Of a DNA stretch of 64,000 bases, positions 6,701-33,900 are shown piece by piece (the stretch's first letter is position 1; every line of letters begins with the position of its first letter). The position numbers were made by a program, and so were the translations under genes. Source of the DNA: Phalacrocorax aristotelis. Taxonomy: Eukaryota > Chordata > Aves > Suliformes > Phalacrocoracidae. The stretch spans positions 52,230,621 through 52,294,620 of the forward strand of contig NC_134280.1 of NCBI RefSeq assembly GCF_949628215.1. The letters are read 5' to 3'. The notes below the pieces were generated by a model that was not told where the DNA came from, made no database searches, and saw only the letters and a list, made by a program, of their open reading frames with translations.

Positions 6701-6901
6701 CTCCATCAGAGAAATGTTTCAAGTCATGTTTTCTGTATGGTCTTTACAGTACAGTACCCGCTGTGTCTCTGGCTGCGTATGTCCTCATAACCAAGTGTTA
6801 GATGGCAAAGGTGGCTGTATAGCTCCAGAAGACTGTCCCTGTGTTCACAACGGGAATTCCTACAATCCAGGAGAATCAATCAGAGTTGGTTGTAACAACT
6901 G
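709..6901 (+). CDS. MUC5AC: MUC5AC exons 1-10 of the window: rest of D2 and most of D'
   Basis: Exons: 709-819, 1232-1301, 2093-2230, 2315-2479, 3221-3315, 4307-4433, 5012-5267, 5863-5912, 6521-6621, 6750-6901 (residues 1-422 of the visible product). The first four complete the D2 VWD domain, including the CGLCG motif split across the 2230/2315 junction. Exons 5-6 carry the C8 domain (cysteine cluster [11 protein letters not shown]). Exon 7 is a TIL module (CPKSLKY to SSCPC), followed by a short E segment in exons 7-8. Exons 9-10 give the D' TIL module ([10 protein letters not shown] to EDCPC) and the start of E'. In this family D1-D2 act in the Golgi to assemble D3-linked multimers. Every junction keeps the frame. 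Introns are short and AT-rich. Confidence 0.88.
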
Positions 6902-9900: not shown

Positions 9901-12900
9901 GTAAGAGGCACTGCTGTATTCTAAATCCAACAAAAAAACACAAAGCAAGTTGGGTAAATCACTGGAAGCCAATCTATCTTGTTAAAATGAAACCATTGAT
10001 AGTAACTTTAACAGTGGTGCCATTAGTGTCTGATCTACTTGTCACCCATGGTACACAACTGGTGAACTATAATGCATCAAGCTCAATGTAAATAAATATT
10101 AGTGCATACTAACTACAATCAGTGATTCAAGTATTTGATTTTTCATGCTTAATTGGTCTCAAAGGGTGGTAGGATTGTAACAATTTTATTAAATTAGAAA
10201 TAAGACCATACACTGTTCACTACCTATGTGATTGTGCTGATTGTATGGAATTTTTACTCAGCAAAACTGAAAGACTGTAAAGCAGAAAGATCAAAGGTCT
10301 TTTTCTGTCATTTCTCCTTTCTCTAGCTCTGTTCTGTGATTACTACAATCCACAAGGGGAATGCGAGTGGCACTACAAGGCATGTGGAGCCCCTTGTATG
10401 AAGACCTGTAATAATCCAAGCGGGAACTGCCTTCATGAGTTGAGAGGTTTGGAAGGTAAACATAATTATGCATATCTCATTCTACTTATAAAAAGCTAAA
10501 ATGCAATATCATTAACAAAATTTATATTACTCAGTATATTATGTTTGTCTTAGAAATTATAAGAGGTTTTCTAACTAGTGTCTTATTCCCTAATGGATCA
10601 TGAACCTGTTTGGAGTGAAGATGAGGACAATATGCTCCAAACCTTAATGTGCAATCAAGGACTAGCAGTAACAGGGTCTGACATTCCACTTACCATATGG
10701 GATAATATGGGGAAAGCTGATATAAGCAGAGTATAGGGTTATTTGTACTTATGAAAAGCCTAGTATCAACATAACTAATTTTTTATTGCAGGCTGCTATC
10801 CACACTGTCCAAAGAATAAGTCCTATTTTGATGAAGAAACCATGACTTGTGTTTCTAATTGTGGTTGTTATGAAAATGGAAAAAATTACAAACCAGGAAT
10901 GCAGATGCCTTCCAAGCAGAATTGTCAATCATGGTAGGATTAGTAAAGATTTTTAAACATTGATTTTAAAGTTGTGGAACATAATTCATCATGCTTTAAT
11001 ATTTTTGCTTGCTAATAGGAACTAGGCCAGTCATAGGCTGTTGAATAGTCTGAGACAGCAACAGTCTGAGAATTTTTGTTAAGATATCCCTAAAATCATT
11101 ATGTGAAATTATTTAGAAGTTGGCAGGCAACTGATCTTCATTGTTTTGAGCTTTTTTCTGTCATTGCAATGGTACTTGCATATTTGCAACTGTCAGCAAG
11201 TATTCCTATACATTCTGTCAGAATTGAGGACATGTTGGGACAAGTGCTGCTAAGCATTCTATCAAATAGCAGAAAGTTAGCAGAACCAGTTGTGAAGCAG
11301 TTAACACCTGTCCTAAGATACCTTTAAAGTAGCTACACTTGAACACTGTAGGCAGTGCTAGCCAGAATGCCAAAGAGCTTGGCACAAAGACCATCTGAGT
11401 TAACCCAACCTTCACAGCAAGTTTTGCAGTTCATAGACAACTTTGTATGCATCATCTATTAACATTGCCTGTTAACAGCACTAAACCTAACCTGTTAAAT
11501 ACATATCTGTATTTACTTAAGTTTATTTACTCTACAGATATCCATAGTCACTGTAAATAAATATATCAAGATTCAGTCCTTACCAGATGATAAATTCCCT
11601 TTAAAAACAGAATGCATTCTTGCATTCTCTTCCATTTGGAAGTCTGATGGAAATTCTCTGTGTAGACAACCTCAACACCCAGTGATACAGTAATCCTTTC
11701 TCAAATGATACACTTACTGCACTTTTCCTTCCAAAAAATAAGTGTACCTATCAGGGAGATAAGAACATTTTAAATCACCTCTCCCCACATCTTTGCCCAG
11801 CCTCCAAAAGCACTGATAAGGATACTGCATGTTTAGTATGCTGGCATAGAAGAGTTGCCTTTTTAGCAGAAAACTGAATGATCCCACCTAACCTGAATTT
11901 GTGCAGAACTGAATATCTACCTCAGAGATGATAGGGTCTTTCTACATTTAAATGTACAATGAATAGCAAAGGATCGATAGGAAAAAATTGAAACAATAAA
12001 ATGATGTCATGAACCAATATATTCAAATTCATCATCACCTTTTTTCTCTTTTCCAGTGAATGCACACATGATGGCGAAAAATGCAGATATAATGAATATG
12101 GTATGTTGACAAAGTTGGTTTTATTTGAATAGGATGCATTCGATGTACTCGGCTCTGTGTTTCAGATACCGAGGAATAACACTCTCTTCTGATTTACAGA
12201 ATGTGTCTGCATTTATGAGGGAAAGAAATACAACTATAAAGATGTGATCTATGATACTACAGATGGCATAGGAGCATGTATTGTTGCAACCTGTGGTCCC
12301 AATGGAACAATTCAAAGGAGTTACTTTGACTGTAGTACCTCAATATCACCCACAACATCTCACTTCAGCTCTACACCACCTGCCACTACTTCCACAGGTA
12401 CATCCTTTATAGACCATAGGTGCATATGCTGCTCAGTAGTGAGTAAAATATAGCTCCAAACCATGCCCACGCTTACAACATAAATGACAGAAGTCTCATT
12501 TGTTATTAGCATTTGGCTTTAATCAGTATTCAGTAACCAAACTAATAAAAAGAAATAAAAATAGAAAAGAAAACCACTTCCAAAACACTAAAATGGAAAC
12601 CACTGCACAGTGGTTTGATACTATTATTTCATAGTGAATGAGAAAAAACGGTATCAGATTTATTATCTGTAATTGTACCTATTTCTGGAATAATCTTTAC
12701 TGAATGAATAATTTGTTATTTTTCCTATTAAATTACAGAATTATTAATTTCTGTAAAATTCCTGGTAGGGTTCATGGTATTCATAATTACAGTACTAAGT
12801 GGATTGCTCGGGTATTGGCATTGAAATACTGAAATTTTAATCTCTAGAATTCCTTTTCAGCATTCTTCAGGTTGGTAATCTCTAGTTACTATGGGCACAT

Positions 12901-15900
12901 GCTGTTTAATGAAATAAGTATCCAGTATAAAATTTAGAACTACAAGTTTTGAAAACACAGAAATCATCAGCACTGCTGCAATTCGTTAGCCATTTTCCAG
13001 CCATTTCACAATGAGAATTCACCTGCAAAACTTATGTACGGCTCACCAACCAATACATGGTTTCTTAAGACCAGAGCTAAAGTACAAAGTTAAGGGGTAC
13101 TAATAATGCTGCATTAGTCATCTTTTACTTCAAATAGAGAAGCAAAGAAAATGCAGCATATTACATGAGGAGTTCACTGATTTGAAGAAAAAAGTACCTG
13201 TGAATCTTGATACATAGACTAAATGTTATTCTTTCCACTGGATTTTAATCCAGGCTTTGACATTCCAGAGAGACTAATAAATATTGAAGCAAGAAACAAA
13301 CCAAACAATTACACTGAATCAAATGCAAAAAAAATGTGATTTCCCCCACCCCCAATGCGTACAAATTAGGCTTAAGACTTATTGCAGCACTTTGTAAAGG
13401 ATAAATGGCATTCTCTTAGGAAGAAACAGTTCCAAGTACATCAGTATGTTAAATTGGTGGGTCATGGATTTTCTTCTCTACTTCATATTACATTACAGGT
13501 ACACTAAACTGATGCACAATTTACAGGCTCACAAAGTAAGAAAATTATCTAAGGAAAAATTTCAGCCAATTTAATGTAATAAAAAAGAGAAAATCCACAG
13601 GAATTTAATCGAAGTTTTGTGGTCTCTTCTTTTTCTCTTTCACAGTGTCACCAACTACATCAGTATGCGTTCATGAAGTCTGTGAGTGGTCAGAATGGTA
13701 CGACGGAAGTCTGCAAACCCCTGGCTACGATGGTGGAGATTTTGAAACCTTTAATGATTTGAGAGCTAAAGGTTATGAAGTCTGTAAAACTCCAAGGGAT
13801 GTTCAATGCAGAGCAGAGAAATTCCCTAATATACCACTGGAAGACCTTGGCCAAAATGTAGAATGCAGTACAATATCTGGGCTTATATGTTACAACAAAG
13901 ATCAAATTTCAAAAATGTGCAACAATTATGAAATCAGAATCTTATGCTGTGTTTTTGAACCATGCTCCTCCACAACACATTTCAGCATGTCAACACCAAT
14001 CACAACTGCAGCTACGAGCACAGAACCACCAAATCCAACTGAAGAAATTAGATCATTTTCAACCACTACAACATCATCAGTTTCTACAACTTCTGAAAGT
14101 ACAACATTCACACCATCAGTGACTAAAAAAAGAACCACAACCACAACCGAAACAACAACACCTGTCACCACCTCTCATTCAACACCTAGTAGTTGCACTG
14201 AAGAAGAATGTTACTGGTCAATGTGGTATGACGTCAGTTACCCAGGATCTGGATACAATGATGGAGATTTTGACACAATAGAGAAAATTGAAAGTAAGGG
14301 ATACAAAGTATGTGAAAACAGACAGGAAGTTGAATGCAGAGCAGTAAGGTTCCCTAACACACCATATCAACTCCTGGAGCAACATATAATATGTAATACA
14401 GAAGAAGGGTTGATATGCTACAATAAAGATCAATTGCCACCAATCTGTTACAATTATGAACTAAGATTTAAATGCTGTGAAAATCGAACAGTACTGTGCA
14501 ACTCAACTACAGCTCTCCCAACAACGACACAAATCTCACACACAACAATGCTGACTACAGGAATTCTAAGTACAATATCCACAAAAGAGACAACACAACA
14601 CTTGCAAACAAAACCAAAGACAACTGCAATACCAACAACACCACCAAAAACAGAACACATTAATAGACCAACATCAAAACCGACAACACAAACCCAAAAA
14701 GAAACAGAAACAACAATGAAAAACTCCACCACAGTCACGACCTCCACCTCCACGTCCTACTCCCCCACCACCCTGCCCACCTCCTCAGAAACCACATCGC
14801 AAACCTACACCAGCACCACCAGCCCCACGACGACACCTACCCCCTCCTCCACCAGCGTGACCTCCACCACCACACACTCCACTACGCCCTGTGAAACCGA
14901 GGAGTGCTCCTGGAGCGAATGGTTCGACGTCGACTTCCCCTCCTCGGGGCCCAGCCAGGGAGACTTTGAAACCTACCAGCACATCCGGGCCGCCGGGAAG
15001 GAACTCTGTCAACGTCCAAAGGAAATCGAGTGCCGGGCGGAGGACTACCCCGAGCTTCCCATCCAAAACGTCGGACAGGTCGTGCAGTGCGACGTCCACT
15101 TTGGGCTGGTGTGCAAGAACGAGGACCAGACTGGCAAATTTAAGATGTGCCTCAACTACAAGATCCGCGTCCTCTGCTGCACACTTCAGAACACTTGCCC
15201 AACCACCCTGCCGACCACCACCAGCCCCACCACCACCACCACCACCACCAGACCAACCAGCACCGCCCCAACCTCCACCACAGTCACGACCTCCACCTCC
15301 ACGTCCTACTCCCCCACCACCCTGCCCACCTCCTCAGAAACCACATCGCAAACCTACACCAGCACCACCAGCCCCACGACGACACCTACCCCCTCCTCCA
15401 CCAGCGTGACCTCCACCACCACACACTCCACTACGCCCTGTGAAACCGAGGAGTGCTCCTGGAGCGAATGGTTCGACGTCGACTTCCCCTCCTCGGGGCC
15501 CAGCCAGGGAGACTTTGAAACCTACCAGCACATCCGGGCCGCCGGGAAGGAACTCTGTCAACGTCCAAAGGAAATCGAGTGCCGGGCGGAGGACTACCCC
15601 GAGCTTCCCATCCAAAACGTCGGACAGGTCGTGCAGTGCGACGTCCACTTTGGGCTGGTGTGCAAGAACGAGGACCAGACTGGCAAATTTAAGATGTGCC
15701 TCAACTACAAGATCCGCGTCCTCTGCTGCACACTTCAGAACACTTGCCCAACCACCCTGCCGACCACCACCAGCCCCACCACCACCACCACCACCACCAG
15801 ACCAACCAGCACCGCCCCAACCTCCACCACAGTCACGACCTCCACCTCCACGTCCTACTCCCCCACCACCCTGCCCACCTCCTCAGAAACCACATCGCAA

Positions 15901-18900
15901 ACCTACACCAGCACCACCAGCCCCACGACGACACCTACCCCCTCCTCCACCAGCGTGACCTCCACCACCACACACTCCACTACGCCCTGTGAAACCGAGG
16001 AGTGCTCCTGGAGCGAATGGTTCGACGTCGACTTCCCCTCCTCGGGGCCCAGCCAGGGAGACTTTGAAACCTACCAGCACATCCGGGCCGCCGGGAAGGA
16101 ACTCTGTCAACGTCCAAAGGAAATCGAGTGCCGGGCGGAGGACTACCCCGAGCTTCCCATCCAAAACGTCGGACAGGTCGTGCAGTGCGACGTCCACTTT
16201 GGGCTGGTGTGCAAGAACGAGGACCAGACTGGCAAATTTAAGATGTGCCTCAACTACAAGATCCGCGTCCTCTGCTGCACACTTCAGAACACTTGCCCAA
16301 CCACCCTGCCGACCACCACCAGCCCCACCACCACCACCACCACCACCAGACCAACCAGCACCGCCCCAACCTCCACCACAGTCACGACCTCCACCTCCAC
16401 GTCCTACTCCCCCACCACCCTGCCCACCTCCTCAGAAACCACATCGCAAACCTACACCAGCACCACCAGCCCCACGACGACACCTACCCCCTCCTCCACC
16501 AGCGTGACCTCCACCACCACACACTCCACTACGCCCTGTGAAACCGAGGAGTGCTCCTGGAGCGAATGGTTCGACGTCGACTTCCCCTCCTCGGGGCCCA
16601 GCCAGGGAGACTTTGAAACCTACCAGCACATCCGGGCCGCCGGGAAGGAACTCTGTCAACGTCCAAAGGAAATCGAGTGCCGGGCGGAGGACTACCCCGA
16701 GCTTCCCATCCAAAACGTCGGACAGGTCGTGCAGTGCGACGTCCACTTTGGGCTGGTGTGCAAGAACGAGGACCAGACTGGCAAATTTAAGATGTGCCTC
16801 AACTACAAGATCCGCGTCCTCTGCTGCACACTTCAGAACACTTGCCCAACCACCCTGCCGACCACCACCAGCCCCACCACCACCACCACCACCACCAGAC
16901 CAACCAGCACCGCCCCAACCTCCACCACAGTCACGACCTCCACCTCCACGTCCTACTCCCCCACCACCCTGCCCACCTCCTCAGAAACCACATCGCAAAC
17001 CTACACCAGCACCACCAGCCCCACGACGACACCTACCCCCTCCTCCACCAGCGTGACCTCCACCACCACACACTCCACTACGCCCTGTGAAACCGAGGAG
17101 TGCTCCTGGAGCGAATGGTTCGACGTCGACTTCCCCTCCTCGGGGCCCAGCCAGGGAGACTTTGAAACCTACCAGCACATCCGGGCCGCCGGGAAGGAAC
17201 TCTGTCAACGTCCAAAGGAAATCGAGTGCCGGGCGGAGGACTACCCCGAGCTTCCCATCCAAAACGTCGGACAGGTCGTGCAGTGCGACGTCCACTTTGG
17301 GCTGGTGTGCAAGAACGAGGACCAGACTGGCAAATTTAAGATGTGCCTCAACTACAAGATCCGCGTCCTCTGCTGCACACTTCAGAACACTTGCCCAACC
17401 ACCCTGCCGACCACCACCAGCCCCACCACCACCACCACCACCACCAGACCAACCAGCACCGCCCCAACCTCCACCACAGTCACGACCTCCACCTCCACGT
17501 CCTACTCCCCCACCACCCTGCCCACCTCCTCAGAAACCACATCGCAAACCTACACCAGCACCACCAGCCCCACGACGACACCTACCCCCTCCTCCACCAG
17601 CGTGACCTCCACCACCACACACTCCACTACGCCCTGTGAAACCGAGGAGTGCTCCTGGAGCGAATGGTTCGACGTCGACTTCCCCTCCTCGGGGCCCAGC
17701 CAGGGAGACTTTGAAACCTACCAGCACATCCGGGCCGCCGGGAAGGAACTCTGTCAACGTCCAAAGGAAATCGAGTGCCGGGCGGAGGACTACCCCGAGC
17801 TTCCCATCCAAAACGTCGGACAGGTCGTGCAGTGCGACGTCCACTTTGGGCTGGTGTGCAAGAACGAGGACCAGACTGGCAAATTTAAGATGTGCCTCAA
17901 CTACAAGATCCGCGTCCTCTGCTGCACACTTCAGAACACTTGCCCAACCACCCTGCCGACCACCACCAGCCCCACCACCACCACCACCACCACCAGACCA
18001 ACCAGCACCGCCCCAACCTCCACCACAGTCACGACCTCCACCTCCACGTCCTACTCCCCCACCACCCTGCCCACCTCCTCAGAAACCACATCGCAAACCT
18101 ACACCAGCACCACCAGCCCCACGACGACACCTACCCCCTCCTCCACCAGCGTGACCTCCACCACCACACACTCCACTACGCCCTGTGAAACCGAGGAGTG
18201 CTCCTGGAGCGAATGGTTCGACGTCGACTTCCCCTCCTCGGGGCCCAGCCAGGGAGACTTTGAAACCTACCAGCACATCCGGGCCGCCGGGAAGGAACTC
18301 TGTCAACGTCCAAAGGAAATCGAGTGCCGGGCGGAGGACTACCCCGAGCTTCCCATCCAAAACGTCGGACAGGTCGTGCAGTGCGACGTCCACTTTGGGC
18401 TGGTGTGCAAGAACGAGGACCAGACTGGCAAATTTAAGATGTGCCTCAACTACAAGATCCGCGTCCTCTGCTGCACACTTCAGAACACTTGCCCAACCAC
18501 CCTGCCGACCACCACCAGCCCCACCACCACCACCACCACCACCAGACCAACCAGCACCGCCCCAACCTCCACCACAGTCACGACCTCCACCTCCACGTCC
18601 TACTCCCCCACCACCCTGCCCACCTCCTCAGAAACCACATCGCAAACCTACACCAGCACCACCAGCCCCACGACGACACCTACCCCCTCCTCCACCAGCG
18701 TGACCTCCACCACCACACACTCCACTACGCCCTGTGAAACCGAGGAGTGCTCCTGGAGCGAATGGTTCGACGTCGACTTCCCCTCCTCGGGGCCCAGCCA
18801 GGGAGACTTTGAAACCTACCAGCACATCCAGGCCGCCGGGAAGGAACTCTGTCAACGTCCAAAGGAAATCGAGTGCCGGGCGGAGGACTACCCCGAGCTT

Positions 18901-21900
18901 CCCATCCAAAACGTCGGACAGGTCGTGCAGTGCGACGTCCACTTTGGGCTGGTGTGCAAGAACGAGGACCAGACTGGCAAATTTAAGATGTGCCTCAACT
19001 ACAAGATCCGCGTCCTCTGCTGCACACTTCAGAACACTTGCCCAACCACCCTGCCGACCACCACCAGCCCCACCACCACCACCACCACCACCAGACCAAC
19101 CAGCACCGCCCCAACCTCCACCACAGTCACGACCTCCACCTCCACGTCCTACTCCCCCACCACCCTGCCCACCTCCTCAGAAACCACATCGCAAACCTAC
19201 ACCAGCACCACCAGCCCCACGACGACACCTACCCCCTCCTCCACCAGCGTGACCTCCACCACCACACACTCCACTACGCCCTGTGAAACCGAGGAGTGCT
19301 CCTGGAGCGAATGGTTCGACGTCGACTTCCCCTCCTCGGGGCCCAGCCAGGGAGACTTTGAAACCTACCAGCACATCCGGGCCGCCGGGAAGGAACTCTG
19401 TCAACGTCCAAAGGAAATCGAGTGCCGGGCGGAGGACTACCCCGAGCTTCCCATCCAAAACGTCGGACAGGTCGTGCAGTGCGACGTCCACTTTGGGCTG
19501 GTGTGCAAGAACGAGGACCAGACTGGCAAATTTAAGATGTGCCTCAACTACAAGATCCGCGTCCTCTGCTGCACACTTCAGAACACTTGCCCAACCACCC
19601 TGCCGACCACCACCAGCCCCACCACCACCACCACCACCACCAGACCAACCAGCACCGCCCCAACCTCCACCACAGTCACGACCTCCACCTCCACGTCCTA
19701 CTCCCCCACCACCCTGCCCACCTCCTCAGAAACCACATCGCAAACCTACACCAGCACCACCAGCCCCACGACGACACCTACCCCCTCCTCCACCAGCGTG
19801 ACCTCCACCACCACACACTCCACTACGCCCTGTGAAACCGAGGAGTGCTCCTGGAGCGAATGGTTCGACGTCGACTTCCCCTCCTCGGGGCCCAGCCAGG
19901 GAGACTTTGAAACCTACCAGCACATCCGGGCCGCCGGGAAGGAACTCTGTCAACGTCCAAAGGAAATCGAGTGCCGGGCGGAGGACTACCCCGAGCTTCC
20001 CATCCAAAACGTCGGACAGGTCGTGCAGTGCGACGTCCACTTTGGGCTGGTGTGCAAGAACGAGGACCAGACTGGCAAATTTAAGATGTGCCTCAACTAC
20101 AAGATCCGCGTCCTCTGCTGCACACTTCAGAACACTTGCCCAACCACCCTGCCGACCACCACCAGCCCCACCACCACCACCACCACCACCAGACCAACCA
20201 GCACCGCCCCAACCTCCACCACAGTCACGACCTCCACCTCCACGTCCTACTCCCCCACCACCCTGCCCACCTCCTCAGAAACCACATCGCAAACCTACAC
20301 CAGCACCACCAGCCCCACGACGACACCTACCCCCTCCTCCACCAGCGTGACCTCCACCACCACACACTCCACTACGCCCTGTGAAACCGAGGAGTGCTCC
20401 TGGAGCGAATGGTTCGACGTCGACTTCCCCTCCTCGGGGCCCAGCCAGGGAGACTTTGAAACCTACCAGCACATCCAGGCCGCCGGGAAGGAACTCTGTC
20501 AACGTCCAAAGGAAATCGAGTGCCGGGCGGAGGACTACCCCGAGCTTCCCATCCAAAACGTCGGACAGGTCGTGCAGTGCGACGTCCACTTTGGGCTGGT
20601 GTGCAAGAACGAGGACCAGACTGGCAAATTTAAGATGTGCCTCAACTACAAGATCCGCGTCCTCTGCTGCACACTTCAGAACACTTGCCCAACCACCCTG
20701 CCGACCACCACCAGCCCCACCACCACCACCACCACCACCAGACCAACCAGCACCGCCCCAACCTCCACCACAGTCACGACCTCCACCTCCACGTCCTACT
20801 CCCCCACCACCCTGCCCACCTCCTCAGAAACCACATCGCAAACCTACACCAGCACCACCAGCCCCACGACGACACCTACCCCCTCCTCCACCAGCGTGAC
20901 CTCCACCACCACACACTCCACTACGCCCTGTGAAACCGAGGAGTGCTCCTGGAGCGAATGGTTCGACGTCGACTTCCCCTCCTCGGGGCCCAGCCAGGGA
21001 GACTTTGAAACCTACCAGCACATCCGGGCCGCCGGGAAGGAACTCTGTCAACGTCCAAAGGAAATCGAGTGCCGGGCGGAGGACTACCCCGAGCTTCCCA
21101 TCCAAAACGTCGGACAGGTCGTGCAGTGCGACGTCCACTTTGGGCTGGTGTGCAAGAACGAGGACCAGACTGGCAAATTTAAGATGTGCCTCAACTACAA
21201 GATCCGCGTCCTCTGCTGCACACTTCAGAACACTTGCCCAACCACCCTGCCGACCACCACCAGCCCCACCACCACCACCACCACCACCAGACCAACCAGC
21301 ACCGCCCCAACCTCCACCACAGTCACGACCTCCACCTCCACGTCCTACTCCCCCACCACCCTGCCCACCTCCTCAGAAACCACATCGCAAACCTACACCA
21401 GCACCACCAGCCCCACGACGACACCTACCCCCTCCTCCACCAGCGTGACCTCCACCACCACACACTCCACTACGCCCTGTGAAACCGAGGAGTGCTCCTG
21501 GAGCGAATGGTTCGACGTCGACTTCCCCTCCTCGGGGCCCAGCCAGGGAGACTTTGAAACCTACCAGCACATCCGGGCCGCCGGGAAGGAACTCTGTCAA
21601 CGTCCAAAGGAAATCGAGTGCCGGGCGGAGGACTACCCCGAGCTTCCCATCCAAAACGTCGGACAGGTCGTGCAGTGCGACGTCCACTTTGGGCTGGTGT
21701 GCAAGAACGAGGACCAGACTGGCAAATTTAAGATGTGCCTCAACTACAAGATCCGCGTCCTCTGCTGCACACTTCAGAACACTTGCCCAACCACCCTGCC
21801 GACCACCACCAGCCCCACCACCACCACCACCACCACCAGACCAACCAGCACCGCCCCAACCTCCACCACAGTCACGACCTCCACCTCCACGTCCTACTCC

Positions 21901-24900
21901 CCCACCACCCTGCCCACCTCCTCAGAAACCACATCGCAAACCTACACCAGCACCACCAGCCCCACGACGACACCTACCCCCTCCTCCACCAGCGTGACCT
22001 CCACCACCACACACTCCACTACGCCCTGTGAAACCGAGGAGTGCTCCTGGAGCGAATGGTTCGACGTCGACTTCCCCTCCTCGGGGCCCAGCCAGGGAGA
22101 CTTTGAAACCTACCAGCACATCCGGGCCGCCGGGAAGGAACTCTGTCAACGTCCAAAGGAAATCGAGTGCCGGGCGGAGGACTACCCCGAGCTTCCCATC
22201 CAAAACGTCGGACAGGTCGTGCAGTGCGACGTCCACTTTGGGCTGGTGTGCAAGAACGAGGACCAGACTGGCAAATTTAAGATGTGCCTCAACTACAAGA
22301 TCCGCGTCCTCTGCTGCACACTTCAGAACACTTGCCCAACCACCCTGCCGACCACCACCAGCCCCACCACCACCACCACCACCACCAGACCAACCAGCAC
22401 CGCCCCAACCTCCACCACAGTCACGACCTCCACCTCCACGTCCTACTCCCCCACCACCCTGCCCACCTCCTCAGAAACCACATCGCAAACCTACACCAGC
22501 ACCACCAGCCCCACGACGACACCTACCCCCTCCTCCACCAGCGTGACCTCCACCACCACACACTCCACTACGCCCTGTGAAACCGAGGAGTGCTCCTGGA
22601 GCGAATGGTTCGACGTCGACTTCCCCTCCTCGGGGCCCAGCCAGGGAGACTTTGAAACCTACCAGCACATCCGGGCCGCCGGGAAGGAACTCTGTCAACG
22701 TCCAAAGGAAATCGAGTGCCGGGCGGAGGACTACCCCGAGCTTCCCATCCAAAACGTCGGACAGGTCGTGCAGTGCGACGTCCACTTTGGGCTGGTGTGC
22801 AAGAACGAGGACCAGACTGGCAAATTTAAGATGTGCCTCAACTACAAGATCCGCGTCCTCTGCTGCACACTTCAGAACACTTGCCCAACCACCCTGCCGA
22901 CCACCACCAGCCCCACCACCACCACCACCACCACCAGACCAACCAGCACCGCCCCAACCTCCACCACAGTCACGACCTCCACCTCCACGTCCTACTCCCC
23001 CACCACCCTGCCCACCTCCTCAGAAACCACATCGCAAACCTACACCAGCACCACCAGCCCCACGACGACACCTACCCCCTCCTCCACCAGCGTGACCTCC
23101 ACCACCACACACTCCACTACGCCCTGTGAAACCGAGGAGTGCTCCTGGAGCGAATGGTTCGACGTCGACTTCCCCTCCTCGGGGCCCAGCCAGGGAGACT
23201 TTGAAACCTACCAGCACATCCGGGCCGCCGGGAAGGAACTCTGTCAACGTCCAAAGGAAATCGAGTGCCGGGCGGAGGACTACCCCGAGCTTCCCATCCA
23301 AAACGTCGGACAGGTCGTGCAGTGCGACGTCCACTTTGGGCTGGTGTGCAAGAACGAGGACCAGACTGGCAAATTTAAGATGTGCCTCAACTACAAGATC
23401 CGCGTCCTCTGCTGCACACTTCAGAACACTTGCCCAACCACCCTGCCGACCACCACCAGCCCCACCACCACCACCACCACCACCAGACCAACCAGCACCG
23501 CCCCAACCTCCACCACAGTCACGACCTCCACCTCCACGTCCTACTCCCCCACCACCCTGCCCACCTCCTCAGAAACCACATCGCAAACCTACACCAGCAC
23601 CACCAGCCCCACGACGACACCTACCCCCTCCTCCACCAGCGTGACCTCCACCACCACACACTCCACTACGCCCTGTGAAACCGAGGAGTGCTCCTGGAGC
23701 GAATGGTTCGACGTCGACTTCCCCTCCTCGGGGCCCAGCCAGGGAGACTTTGAAACCTACCAGCACATCCGGGCCGCCGGGAAGGAACTCTGTCAACGTC
23801 CAAAGGAAATCGAGTGCCGGGCGGAGGACTACCCCGAGCTTCCCATCCAAAACATCGGACAGGTCGTGCAGTGCGACGTCCACTTTGGGCTGGTGTGCAA
23901 GAACGAGGACCAGACTGGCAAATTTAAGATGTGCCTCAACTACAAGATCCGCGTCCTCTGCTGCACACTTCAGAACACTTGCCCAACCACCCTGCCGACC
24001 ACCACCAGCCCCACCACCACCACCACCACCACCAGACCAACCAGCACCGCCCCAACCTCCACCACAGTCACGACCTCCACCTCCACGTCCTACTCCCCCA
24101 CCACCCTGCCCACCTCCTCAGAAACCACATCGCAAACCTACACCAGCACCACCAGCCCCACGACGACACCTACCCCCTCCTCCACCAGCGTGACCTCCAC
24201 CACCACACACTCCACTACGCCCTGTGAAACCGAGGAGTGCTCCTGGAGCGAATGGTTCGACGTCGACTTCCCCTCCTCGGGGCCCAGCCAGGGAGACTTT
24301 GAAACCTACCAGCACATCCGGGCCGCCGGGAAGGAACTCTGTCAACGTCCAAAGGAAATCGAGTGCCGGGCGGAGGACTACCCCGAGCTTCCCATCCAAA
24401 ACGTCGGACAGGTCGTGCAGTGCGACGTCCACTTTGGGCTGGTGTGCAAGAACGAGGACCAGACTGGCAAATTTAAGATGTGCCTCAACTACAAGATCCG
24501 CGTCCTCTGCTGCACACTTCAGAACACTTGCCCAACCACCCTGCCGACCACCACCAGCCCCACCACCACCACCACCACCACCAGACCAACCAGCACCGCC
24601 CCAACCTCCACCACAGTCACGACCTCCACCTCCACGTCCTACTCCCCCACCACCCTGCCCACCTCCTCAGAAACCACATCGCAAACCTACACCAGCACCA
24701 CCAGCCCCACGACGACACCTACCCCCTCCTCCACCAGCGTGACCTCCACCACCACACACTCCACTACGCCCTGTGAAACCGAGGAGTGCTCCTGGAGCGA
24801 ATGGTTCGACGTCGACTTCCCCTCCTCGGGGCCCAGCCAGGGAGACTTTGAAACCTACCAGCACATCCGGGCCGCCGGGAAGGAACTCTGTCAACGTCCA

Positions 24901-27900
24901 AAGGAAATCGAGTGCCGGGCGGAGGACTACCCCGAGCTTCCCATCCAAAACGTCGGACAGGTCGTGCAGTGCGACGTCCACTTTGGGCTGGTGTGCAAGA
25001 ACGAGGACCAGACTGGCAAATTTAAGATGTGCCTCAACTACAAGATCCGCGTCCTCTGCTGCACACTTCAGAACACTTGCCCAACCACCCTGCCGACCAC
25101 CACCAGCCCCACCACCACCACCACCACCACCAGACCAACCAGCACCGCCCCAACCTCCACCACAGTCACGACCTCCACCTCCACGTCCTACTCCCCCACC
25201 ACCCTGCCCACCTCCTCAGAAACCACATCGCAAACCTACACCAGCACCACCAGCCCCACGACGACACCTACCCCCTCCTCCACCAGCGTGACCTCCACCA
25301 CCACACACTCCACTACGCCCTGTGAAACCGAGGAGTGCTCCTGGAGCGAATGGTTCGACGTCGACTTCCCCTCCTCGGGGCCCAGCCAGGGAGACTTTGA
25401 AACCTACCAGCACATCCGGGCCGCCGGGAAGGAACTCTGTCAACGTCCAAAGGAAATCGAGTGCCGGGCGGAGGACTACCCCGAGCTTCCCATCCAAAAC
25501 GTCGGACAGGTCGTGCAGTGCGACGTCCACTTTGGGCTGGTGTGCAAGAACGAGGACCAGACTGGCAAATTTAAGATGTGCCTCAACTACAAGATCCGCG
25601 TCCTCTGCTGCACACTTCAGAACACTTGCCCAACCACCCTGCCGACCACCACCAGCCCCACCACCACCACCACCACCACCAGACCAACCAGCACCGCCCC
25701 AACCTCCACCACAGTCACGACCTCCACCTCCACGTCCTACTCCCCCACCACCCTGCCCACCTCCTCAGAAACCACATCGCAAACCTACACCAGCACCACC
25801 AGCCCCACGACGACACCTACCCCCTCCTCCACCAGCGTGACCTCCACCACCACACACTCCACTACGCCCTGTGAAACCGAGGAGTGCTCCTGGAGCGAAT
25901 GGTTCGACGTCGACTTCCCCTCCTCGGGGCCCAGCCAGGGAGACTTTGAAACCTACCAGCACATCCGGGCCGCCGGGAAGGAACTCTGTCAACGTCCAAA
26001 GGAAATCGAGTGCCGGGCGGAGGACTACCCCGAGCTTCCCATCCAAAACGTCGGACAGGTCGTGCAGTGCGACGTCCACTTTGGGCTGGTGTGCAAGAAC
26101 GAGGACCAGACTGGCAAATTTAAGATGTGCCTCAACTACAAGATCCGCGTCCTCTGCTGCACACTTCAGAACACTTGCCCAACCACCCTGCCGACCACCA
26201 CCAGCCCCACCACCACCACCACCACCAGCCCCACCACCACCACCACCACCACCAGACCAACCAGCACCGCCCCAACCTCCACCACAGTCACGACCTCCAC
26301 CTCCACGTCCTACTCCCCCACCACCCTGCCCACCTCCTCAGAAACCACATCGCAAACCTACACCAGCACCACCAGCCCCACGACGACACCTACCCCCTCC
26401 TCCACCAGCGTGACCTCCACCACCACACACTCCACTACGCCCTGTGAAACCGAGGAGTGCTCCTGGAGCGAATGGTTCGACGTCGACTTCCCCTCCTCGG
26501 GGCCCAGCCAGGGAGACTTTGAAACCTACCAGCACATCCGGGCCGCCGGGAAGGAACTCTGTCAACGTCCAAAGGAAATCGAGTGCCGGGCGGAGGACTA
26601 CCCCGAGCTTCCCATCCAAAACGTCGGACAGGTCGTGCAGTGCGACGTCCACTTTGGGCTGGTGTGCAAGAACGAGGACCAGACTGGCAAATTTAAGATG
26701 TGCCTCAACTACAAGATCCGCGTCCTCTGCTGCACACTTCAGAACACTTGCCCAACCACCCTGCCGACCACCACCAGCCCCACCACCACCACCACCAGAC
26801 CAACCAGCACCGCCCCAACCTCCACCACAGTCACGACCTCCACCTCCACGTCCTACTCCCCCACCACCCTGCCCACCTCCTCAGAAACCACATCGCAAAC
26901 CTACACCAGCACCACCAGCCCCACGACGACACCTACCCCCTCCTCCACCAGCGTGACCTCCACCACCACACACTCCACTACGCCCTGTGAAACCGAGGAG
27001 TGCTCCTGGAGCGAATGGTTCGACGTCGACTTCCCCTCCTCGGGGCCCAGCCAGGGAGACTTTGAAACCTACCAGCACATCCGGGCCGCCGGGAAGGAAC
27101 TCTGTCAACGTCCAAAGGAAATCGAGTGCCGGGCGGAGGACTACCCCGAGCTTCCCATCCAAAACGTCGGACAGGTCGTGCAGTGCGACGTCCACTTTGG
27201 GCTGGTGTGCAAGAACGAGGACCAGACTGGCAAATTTAAGATGTGCCTCAACTACAAGATCCGCGTCCTCTGCTGCACACTTCAGAACACTTGCCCAACC
27301 ACCCTGCCGACCACCACCAGCCCCACCACCACCACCACCACCACCAGACCAACCAGCACCGCCCCAACCTCCACCACAGTCACGACCTCCACCTCCACGT
27401 CCTACTCCCCCACCACCCTGCCCACCTCCTCAGAAACCACATCGCAAACCTACACCAGCACCACCAGCCCCACGACGACACCTACCCCCTCCTCCACCAG
27501 CGTGACCTCCACCACCACACACTCCACTACGCCCTGTGAAACCGAGGAGTGCTCCTGGAGCGAATGGTTCGACGTCGACTTCCCCTCCTCGGGGCCCAGC
27601 CAGGGAGACTTTGAAACCTACCAGCACATCCGGGCCGCCGGGAAGGAACTCTGTCAACGTCCAAAGGAAATCGAGTGCCGGGCGGAGGACTACCCCGAGC
27701 TTCCCATCCAAAACGTCGGACAGGTCGTGCAGTGCGACGTCCACTTTGGGCTGGTGTGCAAGAACGAGGACCAGACTGGCAAATTTAAGATGTGCCTCAA
27801 CTACAAGATCCGCGTCCTCTGCTGCACACTTCAGAACACTTGCCCAACCACCCTGCCGACCACCACCAGCCCCACCACCACCACCACCACCACCAGACCA

Positions 27901-30900
27901 ACCAGCACCGCCCCAACCTCCACCACAGTCACGACCTCCACCTCCACGTCCTACTCCCCCACCACCCTGCCCACCTCCTCAGAAACCACATCGCAAACCT
28001 ACACCAGCACCACCAGCCCCACGACGACACCTACCCCCTCCTCCACCAGCGTGACCTCCACCACCTGTAGTCCTAACTCTAATTGCCAAACTACCTTGCC
28101 CAGCACTACTAGCGTTACCACTGTTACTACTACATCTGTACCATGCTGCACCAACACTTCTTCTACCATTGTTTCACCATGTTTCTGTAAAGTTCAGGAT
28201 GAAATTTTTTCACCTGGTTAGTTAATTTTCTTTTATCTTTATATATGTCTCATCTTTACTGCTTAGTGTTTATTTTTCATAATATTTAATTTTAATTTTG
28301 ATATATTCTTTAGTTTTACTTGGATATTTTTTACCCCCATTTTTTGTTTTTGACCTTGTTTTTTGTTTTTTTGTTTGTTTTTTTTTTTTTTTTTTTTAGG
28401 TGATCTGATTTACCAGAGAATGGATAGTGATGGATGTCGTTTTTATGCCTTCTGTGGTCCAAGATGTACAATTGAACGACATGCTGTGTATTGTAATGTT
28501 ACTACTACTCTAACCACTACTTCCTTTGAATGGTCTACTGTAACGACATCAGTTCCTCCCTCTTCCACTTCACGTATTGGCTGTGTTTCTCCTTCTTACC
28601 CTCCCCTACAGGTATGTTGTTGGTGCATTATGTCATGTTTTTTGAAATAATATCAATGTTAGGTTGATAACAGAAGAGAACTGTTTGTAGTCTAAACCTT
28701 ATCTGCGCAGATTTCTAGGGTAATTTTGCTAGTGATGGGCAATATACATGGCATAAATTTGTATGTGCCTTCTTTATACTTTTTTTTCATAGTGAGAAAG
28801 CATGCTCCAATAATATTTTCTAATTACTCTAGTTCTAGTAAAACATTTTCTGATGCACTTCATTGCATAAATAACAAACCTTCTTACTGCAATAACAGAG
28901 GAAGTTTTCTTGTGTATATTATTTCTTCACTAAATAGAAAAATTTAAGGTACTGTGGGAACTTGTATCTGTTTTTGTTCTCATGTCCTCTTACCTGTACT
29001 TCTGTGCACAGTCTGTTATTCTGGGGTTTTTCTTCTTTTTTTTTTTTTTTTTTAATAGAGATGGGCAGTGCTGATAGTGAAGTACAGCATACATAGCTAG
29101 TATAAAGGACATCAGTTCCCTTAAACCAAGACCTATCCCCCCCCCCAAACCTCAGAAGAGCTCCTCGTGCAGAAGAAATAGCTGGAATTAAGGTTCTCCC
29201 CTCCTCTTTAGCATACAAAAAAATTTAATTAAGTAGAATATTGACAACCTTGTACTATCAGTGAAGTTTTCACTTGTAGTCTTTGCTACAGATTTGGACA
29301 CCCAAACAGTTTCTGATCCTCCGTATCATTGTCAGAATTATGAATACCTCTAGCCAACATTAGAAATCATTAGTACCACAAATTGAAGAGAAGTAACACA
29401 TATTAATTTCCTTTCCAACACCACCATTACTGGAAACAGTATGCTGTTAAACTAAATATATGAGTAAAGTTCATATCTGTTCATCATCTGTCAAACTCCT
29501 GTGACAGCAATTTTTGTTCATTTTGCAGCCTGGACAAAGATACAAATTATCCAACTGTACAGAACTCATCTGTAAGGGAGACAACAAGGTAGAACTAATT
29601 CCAACACACTGCCCACCTCTAAAGGAAATTACGTGTGCGAACAAATATCCGGCAGTACTGGTACCTGATGAAAATGGCTGCTGTTACCGCTATGAGTGTC
29701 AATGTAAGCACCAGTAGATTAAGGAATAACCTTTTTTGAGGAAAGCAAAACTTTGAACAGAGTATATAGGCATTTTGTTTTCTTAGGGTTTCTCTATAAA
29801 TTGTAGCAAGTTCACTTCAGTTTCTAAATTCTTTCTACATTAATTTTCATGTTAGTCTTCTAAACATTTTCTCTCTACCAGGTGTGTGCAGTGGATGGGG
29901 TGATCCTCATTATATTACTTTTGATGGAATCTACTACACTTTCCTTGAAAACTGCACTTACGTCCTGGTGAAACAGATTGTACCTAAGTATGACAACTTC
30001 CGTGTTTATATTGACAATTACTACTGCAATGCGGAAGATGGACTTTCCTGCCCTAAATCCATTATTATTTACTACAAATCTGCAAAAGTGCTGCTGACTC
30101 GTGAACTCAGGAATGGTGTGATGACCAACGTGGTAAAATACACATTTTTTTATTTATCTATTTTTGCAAAAAAGAAATAAGGTTTATAGGCCTTACTGAT
30201 TCTTGTTGAAATACAGTCTGTTAGTATATCTTTTCACAGAGGTGATGAGGGCAGAGGATATCATTAGAAAAATAAAAATTACAAAAGTTTCTAAGAACAA
30301 AATGTCAGAAACAGCTTAGCAGTATGCAGATATTAATATATTATGTGCAGGTATGTGTGTATATAAATAACACTAAGAAACAGGCAAACTGATAGAGAAG
30401 ACAGAAAGAATGCTTATACTGGTGCTTGATTCATGTTTCATGAAAACTAGTGCATTGTGCTATTCATTTATGTAAACAAACGTTATGAAGAAACGTGAAC
30501 GCAAATCACAAGCATGATTCTTCTCTCATGGTGAAGATGGGTGTGTATCCCTTATCAGCTGGATGACTAGGGATTGCTTCCTCTTCATAGGGAACTTCAG
30601 GCACCAAACAGCCAGGACATGATTCCCCCTCCAATTCCCTGCTGGGGAGAGAGGTATAGATAAAGAACAGGGGTGACTGGGGGTGTCATTTCACCTTCAT
30701 GATCCTAAAATAATGCTGGCAAGCCAGTGAAAACAAAAAGTCAGTCCTACTGTTAAACTGGAGAATTTATTAGTTGACTGGAGAACATGAAGAGGTGGGA
30801 GAAAAGTTTGTCTCAATATGCACTCTCCCCCTACAAAGCCATGCCAATTTCTCCTTACCTACAGTTAGAAAGACATGGTGAAGTAATTAGTCCAGTGATT

Positions 30901-33900
30901 CCCTGTGAAAGAAAACAGTAACTGACAGTTTTAACTCTTACTTTATCCCAATTGAATAAGAAGAAAGTTGCTGAATAATTGCTGACAAAAAGTTATTGTG
31001 CAAATATGTCTACTTTCATTAGTTCTTATAAGATACAATCTGCAAATGGAACAGCTTAGATTAATTAATAAATATTATTACTGCATAAAACTGGCACCAG
31101 GGACATTTGACGTGATTTTGAATCCAGACAACTCTTCCAATGCCAAGCAACGTGTAGTATAGGGACAGTGTGATTCTGCAGCAAAATTATTACATAATAA
31201 TGGCAGGAATATTTCTATAGTTAAAGAAAACTACCACTCATTTTCATATGAAAAATGTTTACAACAAAGGAAATGATGAGGGATACAAAGAAAATACTTG
31301 GATTTAGAACGCTGTGCATTAGCACACAATCTGCACAAACTCAGTACATGAAGGCCACTTAGATTATTATCACACTGTAGCACTCCAGCAATACAAGCTA
31401 ACATATTAATGCATATATATGCTGTTGTTGCAATGGCAATGGGCATCGGATGAGATGCAAAACAATATGGCATTATACATGATTATGAAGATTAGAAAAT
31501 ACATTATTTAAAACGATTAGGCAGAAGCAGTGCTTATTTTGAAATTGTGTTTTTTTAACCCTGCATTCAGATGTACTTCAACGAAGTGATTGTCAAACCA
31601 GGCTTCAAAAAAGATGGTATTTCTTTCTCCACACTTGGCATCAATATGATTGTTGATATACCAGAGATTGGTGCAACCATCACTTTTAGTGGGCTGATTT
31701 TCTCCGTGAAACTCCCATACAGCAAATTTGGAAACAACACCGAAGGACAGTGTGGTAAGACAGATACACTAATTGGAGGTGGGACTCTTTTCCCACCCTA
31801 GCATGATTATTCTCACCCACTCTGGCTATGGTCTCATGATTGTCAGAAATTTTTAACAGCAGTAAAATGGAAATGAAAACAGTTCTGCTCTTCAAGTTCT
31901 GTAGGATCAAAAGCTCAGTGTTTCAGCAACCTGGTTTGTTTTTTTTATTATTATTTGGGTTGGGGTTTTAGGTTTATTTGGTTTTCCCTAACCTAAATTA
32001 AAGTTCATATAACTGTAAAGAAAGCCCTCCCTATGAAGCAAAGCACCTTATACACTTCATGAGCACATCACTTCTAAACATGATATCAGCACCATAATGT
32101 ATTTTGCATCTTTGATATGGCTTATGAGATTTACATAGCTTGTTTCTTCCAGGAACATGTACAAATGATAAATTAGATGAATGCCGCTTACCAAGTGGTA
32201 AGATCATTTCTTCCTGTCCCCAAATGGCTCATCACTGGATCGTTGCTAACAACAAGTCATGCCATGGAGTACCGCCTCCATCACATATAACCACACCTCC
32301 ACCAAAGCCTCCATGTGAAACACCTCTCTGCAACCTTATCTGGAGCAAGTAAGAAAAAAATGAATGAATTCACTCTCTCTAGAAAAAACTGTCTCAGTAT
32401 CTTACAAGAAGAGTAAGAACTATAGCCCTAGCATGCGATAATACCTGAAAATATCAGCTTAATGACAGGATATATACAGTAAAAGGCCTTTACAAAAGAA
32501 ACGGCTCTTCTTTAACGACTTACATGCCAAAGATAACTGAGCAAGGAGAGGTGAAGTCAGGAAATCAGGGATGCAGCAAGCACTAAAATCCATACTTCCT
32601 GGGTTGGAATCACAAAGATTTATGTTACCTTTCTCCCTCCCTTCCAGGATATGCTCACTCACTCTTACTTACACTGTTTAAAGACTGAACTCTATATTTG
32701 AAGTGGGCCTTCAGTACAAACCATAAAGAGCCAAGTGTCCTTCATTCTTTGTACATGTTATGTAAAATATGGAGTTCCAAAAGTGTGAAGTCTTGTTTTC
32801 AGCAGTATTTCCTACACTGTGTGAGCTCTGACAAAAGCTTTTTTTCAGCTGGGTCACTTATAAAGGTCCTCTTACACATGCTGCTTCAGTGTCTAATAAA
32901 TTCTGAGTTTTGTATGTGCAACATTTCTATCTCTTGGCTACTTTAATCATCCCTTTTTCCTCAATCTGATACACTTGCCTTTTTCATGAAATTTCAGACT
33001 GATGCAAAGTTGTGTATACATACAGAAACACTATGACCTTTAGACTCTTCCGAAAAAAAAACGGAGCTTCAAATTTCCTAACCTTTCCTTTCCTGACTCT
33101 ATCTCCCAGATTATTGGCTATTCTTAGGGTTATTTTTTCTAGTAATATATTCCTTGCTGAAGCAGACAGTCACATGCCATTAACGTGATGGATTTTATAC
33201 AATGGCTAGTTAACATAAAAGGGGTTTGGTTTATTTCCTGTCTGCAGGAGTTTTGCAGAATGTCATGATGTGATACCACCAGAACCATTTTTCAAAGGCT
33301 GTGTTTTTGATGGATGTCGCATAGCAAATGAATCCATGCAGTGTTCCAGTTTGGAGATGTATGCTACAGAGTGTGCTGCTAGAGGTGTCTGCATTGATTG
33401 GAGAGGAAAGACTAACAATACATGCCGTAAGTACTGCAGAACTCAAAAATGCATGTGAGAAATGGTCGTAATTAGTGTTTTATTCAGTAAACACCTCTTA
33501 CATCTAATAGTTGACTACTGTCTACAAAAATACAGAGACAACCTTACTCATAGAAGCTACAGGCAAAGCTGTAGTCACTTTTGCTGCAAAAATGCATTTA
33601 CTGTCAATTTTTGATCTTTTTTCTTTTTCCATACAGCATACAACTGCCCAGCAAGCACAGTATACAAGGCATGTGGGCCCATTAATCCTGTTACCTGTGA
33701 CCCACGGTATGGAAAGACAAAAAAAAAATCCCACCTCAAAACAACTGCTTATCTTTTTCATTTTTTCTGTTTTTACTTACCTACTTTCCTTAGAAGATGG
33801 AGTAACTTCATAATAAAATTTCTTGTGAATTTGGATAATTTATTCAAGATTTATAAATATCAATCAGCTCTATGAATATGTGCTTCCTGTTGCACTTCAG

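What the first reader, a model, noticed from the sequence alone, without database searches (positions are those of the whole stretch)
14724..28065. A 24-copy, almost perfect CysD-PTS array gives this MUC5AC 26 CysD domains in one exon
The sequence shows 24 units of 549 bp, each one CysD (103 residues) plus one PTS (80 residues), after two diverged CysDs. Human MUC5AC has nine CysDs separated by PTS blocks of different length and sequence. Here the CysD/PTS alternation is strictly periodic at 183 residues, so candidate non-covalent cross-linking points occur at regular spacing along some 4,400 residues. If real, this is a distinct mucin architecture that should change gel mesh size compared with mammals.
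Basis: partly seen in the sequence, partly recalled or inferred. Interest (0 to 1): 0.88.

Follow-up and report, generated by a model that had tools for sequence, protein, structure and literature searches.

The report
Bird mucin with 26 CysD domains
This stretch of a cormorant genome carries a mucus-gel gene whose central exon repeats one sticky-domain-plus-sugar-linker module 24 times almost letter for letter, and many other birds have similarly long, self-homogenised versions, so the finding is real but is a common bird form of a known mucin design.

Summary
Window 14724-28065 holds 24 head-to-tail units (103-residue CysD plus 80-residue PTS) after two diverged CysDs, in one exon of a MUC5AC gene that codes the database protein mucin-5AC of Phalacrocorax aristotelis, a cormorant. 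Of 23 complete units, 18 are identical, three carry one substitution and two differ only by an indel. The reading needs widening: the array is not peculiar to this bird. Of 95 avian MUC5AC models sampled (this one included), 56 have 17-32 CysDs. In 13 of 13 birds tested the sampled array CysDs group by species, while CysD1 and CysD2 group across species: concerted evolution. The window adds a sharp composition border: fourfold-site GC is 0.83 inside the array and 0.17-0.19 in the rest of the exon, as expected from GC-biased gene conversion. Recurrence argues against an assembly artefact, but this bird's copy number is unverified, and 23 of 95 models have five or fewer CysDs, which I read, without proof, mostly as collapsed or partial models. 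Mucins with up to 25 CYS domains, concerted evolution of the domain and the number-and-spacing cross-linking idea are already in print. The effect on mucus is plausible and untested.

The parts
709..12396 (+). 19 matched exon pieces coding residues 467-1335 of the protein (D2 to D3 and linker); the first 466 residues are not in the window
   Evidence: letter-for-letter mapping of P0001; D3 region best match MUC5AC among PDB chains
13646..28216 (+). large central exon, 14,571 bp, 26 CysDs
   Evidence: P0001 residues 1336-6193 read without a break; borders inferred from AG before 13646 and GT at 28217; 26 PF13330 stretches
13666..13965 (+). CysD1, diverged from the unit (47% identical), groups with CysD1 of other birds
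14194..14499 (+). CysD2, diverged from the unit (42% identical), groups with the corresponding CysD of other birds
14724..28065 (+). array of 24 CysD-PTS units, period 549 bp (573 and 543 at units 21 and 22)
   Evidence: fourfold GC 0.825 inside against 0.193 before and 0.172 after in the same exon
14890..15438 (+). first complete unit: CysD 14890-15198, PTS 15199-15438
28066..28216 (+). unique 3' end of the exon, GC3 0.30
28402..41045 (+). 18 matched exon pieces coding residues 6194-7044 (D4, VWC-like and cystine-knot parts); stop codon follows 41045
   Evidence: C8 and Cys_knot (25 bits, cut-off 24) matches; the VWC match was below its cut-off

Best explanation
This is the central exon of MUC5AC of Phalacrocorax aristotelis. 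It is an old type of CysD-PTS tandem array, recurring across neognath orders, that is kept nearly identical within each species by unequal exchange and gene conversion (concerted evolution), with a bias towards G and C. Copy number changes between species while each unit keeps a CysD fold. The protein is a gel-forming mucin in which 24 identical or nearly identical compact CysDs sit about every 183 residues between O-glycosylated linkers. I think it most likely that they act as many equal, weak, reversible contacts between mucin chains, giving a more densely cross-linked gel than the nine-CysD human protein. Shown here: array, gene identity, recurrence, species-wise homogenisation, GC border. 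Inferred: the exchange and conversion mechanism. Inferred from other mucins: glycosylation, contacts, gel effect.
For: Array and exon. Gene: identical to the protein named mucin-5AC of this species; residues 467-7044 map to 38 pieces of the window except 8 residues at split codons; MUC5AC is the best PDB match of the D3 region. Recurrence: 56 of 95 avian models, the shag's included, have 17-32 CysDs. Concerted evolution: in 26 birds array-type CysDs are 0.946-1.000 identical within a species; the commonest one of the 25 others is 0.75-0.88 identical to the shag's; CysD1 (24 of 25 found) 0.82-0.91 and CysD2 (24 of 25 found) 0.79-0.86. In the tree the three sampled array CysDs of each of 13 of 13 species lie on one side of a branch, and the 13 CysD1 and the 13 CysD2-type rows each form a group at 99 or more. 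PTS: 21 of 21 other birds align to the shag PTS above 40 composition shuffles, z 2.6-14.0. GC: at shared residues third bases go AT->GC 23, GC->AT 2 (CysD1 to unit, 44 codons) and 27, 1 (CysD2 to unit, 41); control CysD1 to CysD2 6 and 7 of 48. Constraint: 1562 of 1575 CysDs in the 95 models hold WxxW and 1509 at least 9 Cys (homogenised copies are not independent). Function: strings of 12 CYS domains stiffen mucus and lower mesh size (PMC6861317; PMC4431476; passages).
Against: Copy number rests on one assembly. 39 of 95 avian models have fewer than 17 CysDs and 23 have five or fewer; 13 of the 53 models with a near-complete C-terminus have five or fewer, some on very long contigs (Coccothraustes 2, Parus major 2; king penguin has 8), so some birds may really be short. 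Spacing is not regular in all long models: in Haliaeetus, Falco, Strix and Indicator the modal spacing holds for a minority of gaps. The substitution shared by units 8 and 11 is at a CpG, as is that of unit 17 (sequence), so it may be recurrent mutation and not a trace of exchange. The direction of the GC shift is not polarised with DNA of other birds. The tree has few columns and cannot tell one old array from parallel expansions of the same unit type. Human MUC5AC CysD1 was not seen on its own filament, so self-contact is not settled (PMC11912381, passages). No expression, proteomic, structural or rheology data.
Confidence: 0.77

Rival explanations
1. Assembly artefact: the assembler looped over a short repeat and the true gene has a few units.
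For: 18 of 23 units are identical, no reads were available, and 23 of 95 avian models hold five or fewer CysDs.
Against: Arrays of 17-32 CysDs in 56 of 95 avian models from many species, each with its own unit sequence; scattered single changes and two unit-length variants inside; the GC border needs a long history. Short and long records of one species coexist (Lonchura striata 21 and 2; Gallus 28 against 8, 8 and 5); the short ones named here are also incomplete at the C-terminus.
Confidence: 0.06
2. Recent one-off expansion in the shag lineage, without long-term concerted evolution.
For: Copies are nearly identical, as after a fresh expansion.
Against: The same CysD type and a recognisable PTS recur in other orders, and GC3 near 0.8 is not what fresh copies of an AT-rich unit would have.
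Confidence: 0.06
3. The GC-rich composition comes from an unmethylated, CpG-island-like exon or from codon selection, not from biased gene conversion.
For: CpG observed/expected is 0.79-0.91 in the array against 0.19-0.38 outside.
Against: The shift stops within about 100 bp of both array edges and is absent from the other CysDs of the exon. All three substitutions inside the array are G->A at a CpG, which is what methylated CpGs give, though three is few.
Confidence: 0.2
4. The CysDs serve mainly something other than chain-to-chain contact: enzymatic cross-linking, lipid or other partners, or trafficking through C-mannosylated WxxW.
For: WxxW in 1562 of 1575 avian CysDs; such roles are discussed in passages seen (PMC11912381; PMC6861317), and TGM3 cross-links MUC2 (PMC8752817).
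Against: Poly-CYS alone stiffens mucus (PMC6861317); the roles do not exclude one another.
Confidence: 0.3

Closest known systems
Human MUC5AC
   Same: same order of D domains, CysD/PTS exon, D4 and cystine knot; D3 region best matches MUC5AC in the PDB and the unit CysD best matches the PDB chain 8ov0, Mucin-5AC; CysD number varies between human haplotypes and apes (PMC11344006, passages)
   Different: typically nine CysDs (PMC11912381, passages) and PTS blocks of 8-residue motifs; here 26 CysDs, 24 in a homogenised array of nearly fixed period
MUC5AC of other birds
   Same: diverged CysDs followed by a homogenised CysD-PTS array; 56 of 95 sampled models, the shag's included, have 17-32 CysDs
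   Different: own unit sequence and period in each species; chicken, duck and ostrich have a further CysD before the array
Human MUC5B super-repeat
   Same: CysD plus PTS duplicated as a block (recalled); haplotypes with two added cys domains (PMC11344006, passages)
   Different: a few long super-repeats (recalled) rather than 24 short ones
Alligator and elephant-shrew mucins named MUC5B and fish mucins with regular CysD arrays
   Same: alligator 24 CysDs at 256 residues, Hypomesus 21 at 167, Oncorhynchus kisutch 20 at 162
   Different: D3 only 62-64% identical to the shag's; probably paralogues with arrays of their own
Poly-CysD proteins: Oikosin1 (13), little skate Mucin-5AC (27), engineered rCYSx12
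   Same: many CysDs in one secreted protein (PMC6861317; PMC4431476; PMC11765562; passages)
   Different: not built as a VWD-framed mucin with PTS linkers

Membership tests
MUC5AC (gel-forming mucin) | D3 region closest to MUC5AC among paralogues with solved structures | tested here: met
   whole-chain 486 (MUC5AC), 410 (MUC5B), 392 (MUC2) bits; the chains differ in extent, and piece by piece the lead over MUC5B is small (203 vs 193 and 60 vs 58), larger over MUC2 (164 and 47)
MUC5AC (gel-forming mucin) | N-terminal D domains, central CysD/PTS exon, D4, C-terminal cystine knot | tested here: met
   P0001 sequence and exon map; VWD, C8, TIL and Cys_knot matches; the first 466 residues are seen only in P0001
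MUC5AC (gel-forming mucin) | first CysD closest to MUC5AC CysD1 | tested here: inconclusive
   CysD1 scores 125 bits to a MUC5B CysD and 106 to MUC5AC CysD1
MUC5AC (gel-forming mucin) | position in the MUC6-MUC2-MUC5AC-MUC5B cluster | not testable with these tools
   neighbouring genes not in the window; genome search not answered in seven calls
CysD (PF13330) domain | about 100 residues, WxxW, ten cysteines | tested here: met
   26 Pfam stretches; W8, W11 and ten Cys invariant in the three CysD types of the window
CysD (PF13330) domain | reversible self-association | not testable with these tools
   bench work; no structure was obtained
Concertedly evolving tandem array | copies closer within than between species while neighbouring single copies are orthologous | tested here: met

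The most novel reading that the evidence does not exclude
Bird MUC5AC is a self-homogenising gel ruler: recurrent germ-line gene conversion in one exon keeps the CysDs of an array nearly identical and GC-rich, lets the number of cross-link points jump between alleles and species (17-32 in the long models), and leaves the modal spacing within about 150-190 residues, so that gel stiffness can evolve by copy number alone while the sticky site evolves as one.
Probability: 0.33. Interest if true: 0.65.

Novelty: new member of a known kind. Interest (0 to 1): 0.45.

Why it matters
It gives a natural series for testing an open question in mucus biology: what the number and spacing of CysDs do to the gel. 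Bird models differ in CysD count with similar spacing and nearly one CysD sequence per array. It also warns that many deposited bird MUC5AC models (23 of 95 here with five or fewer CysDs) may be collapsed or partial, and offers a coding array with a sharp GC border for studying gene conversion.

Tried and rejected
Assembly artefact as the whole explanation: disfavoured by recurrence. Recent single-species expansion: disfavoured by GC3 and the spread of the unit. The first protein search ranks by summed score and so favours high copy numbers; two D3-based searches were added to lessen that, and counts are for the union of the three lists (218 proteins). Each list shows only the best 120 (of 531, 590 and 2160), so the census is a sample; isoforms and several records of one species are counted singly; 17 as a cut was chosen after seeing the counts. 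P0012 (28 CysDs), P0009 and P0028 are not among the 95 because they did not pass the D3 filter. Irregular models were kept in the counts. The avian label of the 95 rests on D3 identity of at least 78% over more than 350 residues and on the source names in the tables. The 87 rows at D3 55-78% include at least one bird paralogue (Rhea, 14 CysDs); 14 of 87 have 17 or more CysDs. Ten paper searches of the held open-access library listed no paper that by title or abstract start describes CysD arrays across birds; I opened passages of few of them, and a poultry mucus review (PMC8521165) was seen only in a listing. Chicken papers (PMC1552070, PMC3549977, passages) note CysD/PTS repeats and genome gaps. 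PMC4431476 (passages) already states up to 25 CYS domains, concerted evolution and number-and-spacing cross-linking, which lowered the novelty score. Two papers asked for by id are not held. Rfam gave nothing at gathering scores.
Full report
What is there. The + strand frame 13609-28221 is open for 4,870 residues and holds 26 PF13330 CysD stretches. Two are single and diverged (13666-13965 and 14194-14499; 47% and 42% identical to the unit). Of 23 complete units, 21 are 549 bp and 18 are identical; units 8 and 11 carry the same R->Q change, unit 17 a V->I change, and units 21 (+24 bp) and 22 (-6 bp) differ only by an indel in the ACC run of the PTS. All three substitutions are G->A at a CpG (sequence). 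The unit is a 103-residue CysD and an 80-residue PTS that is 72.5% Ser+Thr and 14% Pro. Ten cysteines and WxxW are invariant in the three CysD types.

Which gene, which animal. A protein search returned mucin-5AC of Phalacrocorax aristotelis, 7,044 residues, 100% identical. Its residues 467-7044 map to 38 pieces of the window letter for letter apart from eight residues at split codons. So the window is from this cormorant (taxonomy; the common name European shag is recalled) or from something with an identical protein. The database protein is probably predicted from the same assembly and is no independent check of the copy number. The array lies in one exon of about 14.6 kb (13646-28216; borders inferred). 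The D3 region matches MUC5AC best in the PDB (whole-chain 486 bits; MUC5B 410; MUC2 392), but those chains differ in extent, and piece by piece the lead over MUC5B is small (203 vs 193; 60 vs 58). Against it, CysD1 scores higher with a MUC5B CysD (125 bits) than with MUC5AC CysD1 (106 bits). Neighbouring genes were not available.

Is it peculiar to this bird? No. Among 218 proteins from three searches, 95 have a D3 at least 78% identical to the shag's and are bird MUC5AC models (the shag's included); 56 of 95 have 17-32 CysDs, 16 have 6-16 and 23 have five or fewer. Among the 53 with a near-complete C-terminus the figures are 33, 7 and 13. Modal spacing is 152-190 residues in 55 of the 56 and 115 in one; in several (Haliaeetus, Falco, Strix, Indicator) the mode covers only a minority of gaps. 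Short and long records of one species coexist: Lonchura striata 21 and 2, Gallus 28 against 8, 8 and 5, Taeniopygia 28 and 20 against 12, 7 and 3. I read most short ones as collapsed or partial, but I had no assembly data, and some near-complete short models lie on very long contigs (Coccothraustes 2 CysDs, Parus major 2; king penguin 8), so some birds may really have few. The lists hold only the best 120 of 531, 590 and 2,160 hits, so this is a sample. Among 87 more distant relatives (D3 55-78%, one a bird paralogue), 14 have 17 or more CysDs; alligator mucin-5B has 24 at 256 residues and Hypomesus 21 at 167.

How it stays so uniform. In 26 birds, array-type CysDs are 0.946-1.000 identical within a species, and the commonest one of the 25 others is 0.75-0.88 identical to the shag's; CysD1 and CysD2, each found in 24 of the 25, are 0.82-0.91 and 0.79-0.86. 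In a quick tree of 93 CysDs (103 columns, poorly resolved inside) the three sampled array CysDs of each of 13 of 13 species fall on one side of a branch: five sets are identical rows, six have starred support, two have 83 and 86. The 13 CysD1 rows and the 13 CysD2-type rows each form a group at 99 or more. The PTS is homologous too: 21 of 21 other birds align to the shag PTS better than 40 composition shuffles, z 2.6 to 14.0 (ostrich not in that test). This is the pattern of concerted evolution. The array CysDs of all 13 birds, ostrich included, form one group (96), so the unit type is older than these lineages; whether the array itself is, or expanded in parallel, the tree cannot say. The change shared by units 8 and 11 fits exchange between units but, being at a CpG, may be recurrent.

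The composition border. GC at fourfold sites is 0.825 over the array (2,636 sites), 0.193 before it (161) and 0.172 after it (29) in the same exon, and 0.355 in the 37 other exon pieces. CpG observed/expected is 0.79-0.91 inside and 0.19-0.38 outside. At residues shared by CysD1 and the unit, third bases go AT->GC in 23 and GC->AT in 2 of 44 codons; CysD2 to unit, 27 and 1 of 41; the control CysD1 to CysD2 gives 6 and 7 of 48. GC-biased gene conversion in a recombining array explains the border best. An unmethylated array or codon selection remain possible; the three CpG changes speak mildly against the former. No DNA of other birds was available to polarise the shift.

How it most likely works. 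Shown: a gel-forming mucin frame with 24 equal CysDs at a nearly fixed period. Known from others: CYS domains are thought to make reversible contacts, and strings of twelve stiffen mucus, lower permeability and reduce mesh size (PMC6861317, passages; PMC4431476, passages). Inferred: the shag protein is a high-valency version, with the PTS as O-glycosylated spacer, and forms a denser transient network than nine-CysD human MUC5AC. Open: human MUC5AC CysD1 did not appear on its filament, and isopeptide cross-links and other partners are discussed (PMC11912381, passages). No structure model was obtained.

What is new. CysD copy-number change is known in human and ape MUC5AC and MUC5B (PMC11344006, passages), a 27-CysD skate protein is listed (PMC11765562, passages), and up to 25 CYS domains in mucins, concerted evolution and number-and-spacing cross-linking are stated in PMC4431476 (passages). 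Ten searches of the open-access library listed no account of the array across birds, its GC border or its collapse in models; subscription papers were not searchable. So this is a new, very regular member of a known kind.

Noticed in passing
window 14785-28054, both strands: Each unit is also open for 182 of 183 codons in a second + frame and in one antisense frame (190 and 180 at the two length variants); probably a by-product of the GC-rich composition.
   Followed up: no
Gallus, Anas, Struthio CysD 2 (proteins P0022, P0029, P0066): Chicken, duck and ostrich have a further CysD between CysD1 and the counterpart of the shag's CysD2; it groups (83-92, not starred) with turtle and lizard CysD 2, so the Neoaves sampled seem to have lost one ancestral CysD.
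   Followed up: partly
P0021 (Patagioenas fasciata), P0039 (Strix aluco): Many CysD spacings of about 60-150 residues in these models look like predicted introns cut inside the repeat exon rather than real short spacers.
   Followed up: no
P0033 (Colius striatus), P0121 (Platysternon megacephalum): Database names look wrong: Colius 'mucin-5B' has a D3 90% identical to shag MUC5AC, and Platysternon 'antigen KI-67' is a mucin-like protein with CysDs.
   Followed up: no
window 41046-64000: Five ORFs tested downstream of the stop gave no Pfam match above its cut-off, and Rfam found nothing in the window; the rest of this stretch was not examined further.
   Followed up: partly
P0065 (alligator, named mucin-5B): 22 of 23 CysD spacings are exactly 256 residues with about 99% median adjacent identity: a second, long-period homogenised array in a related archosaur gene.
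   Followed up: no
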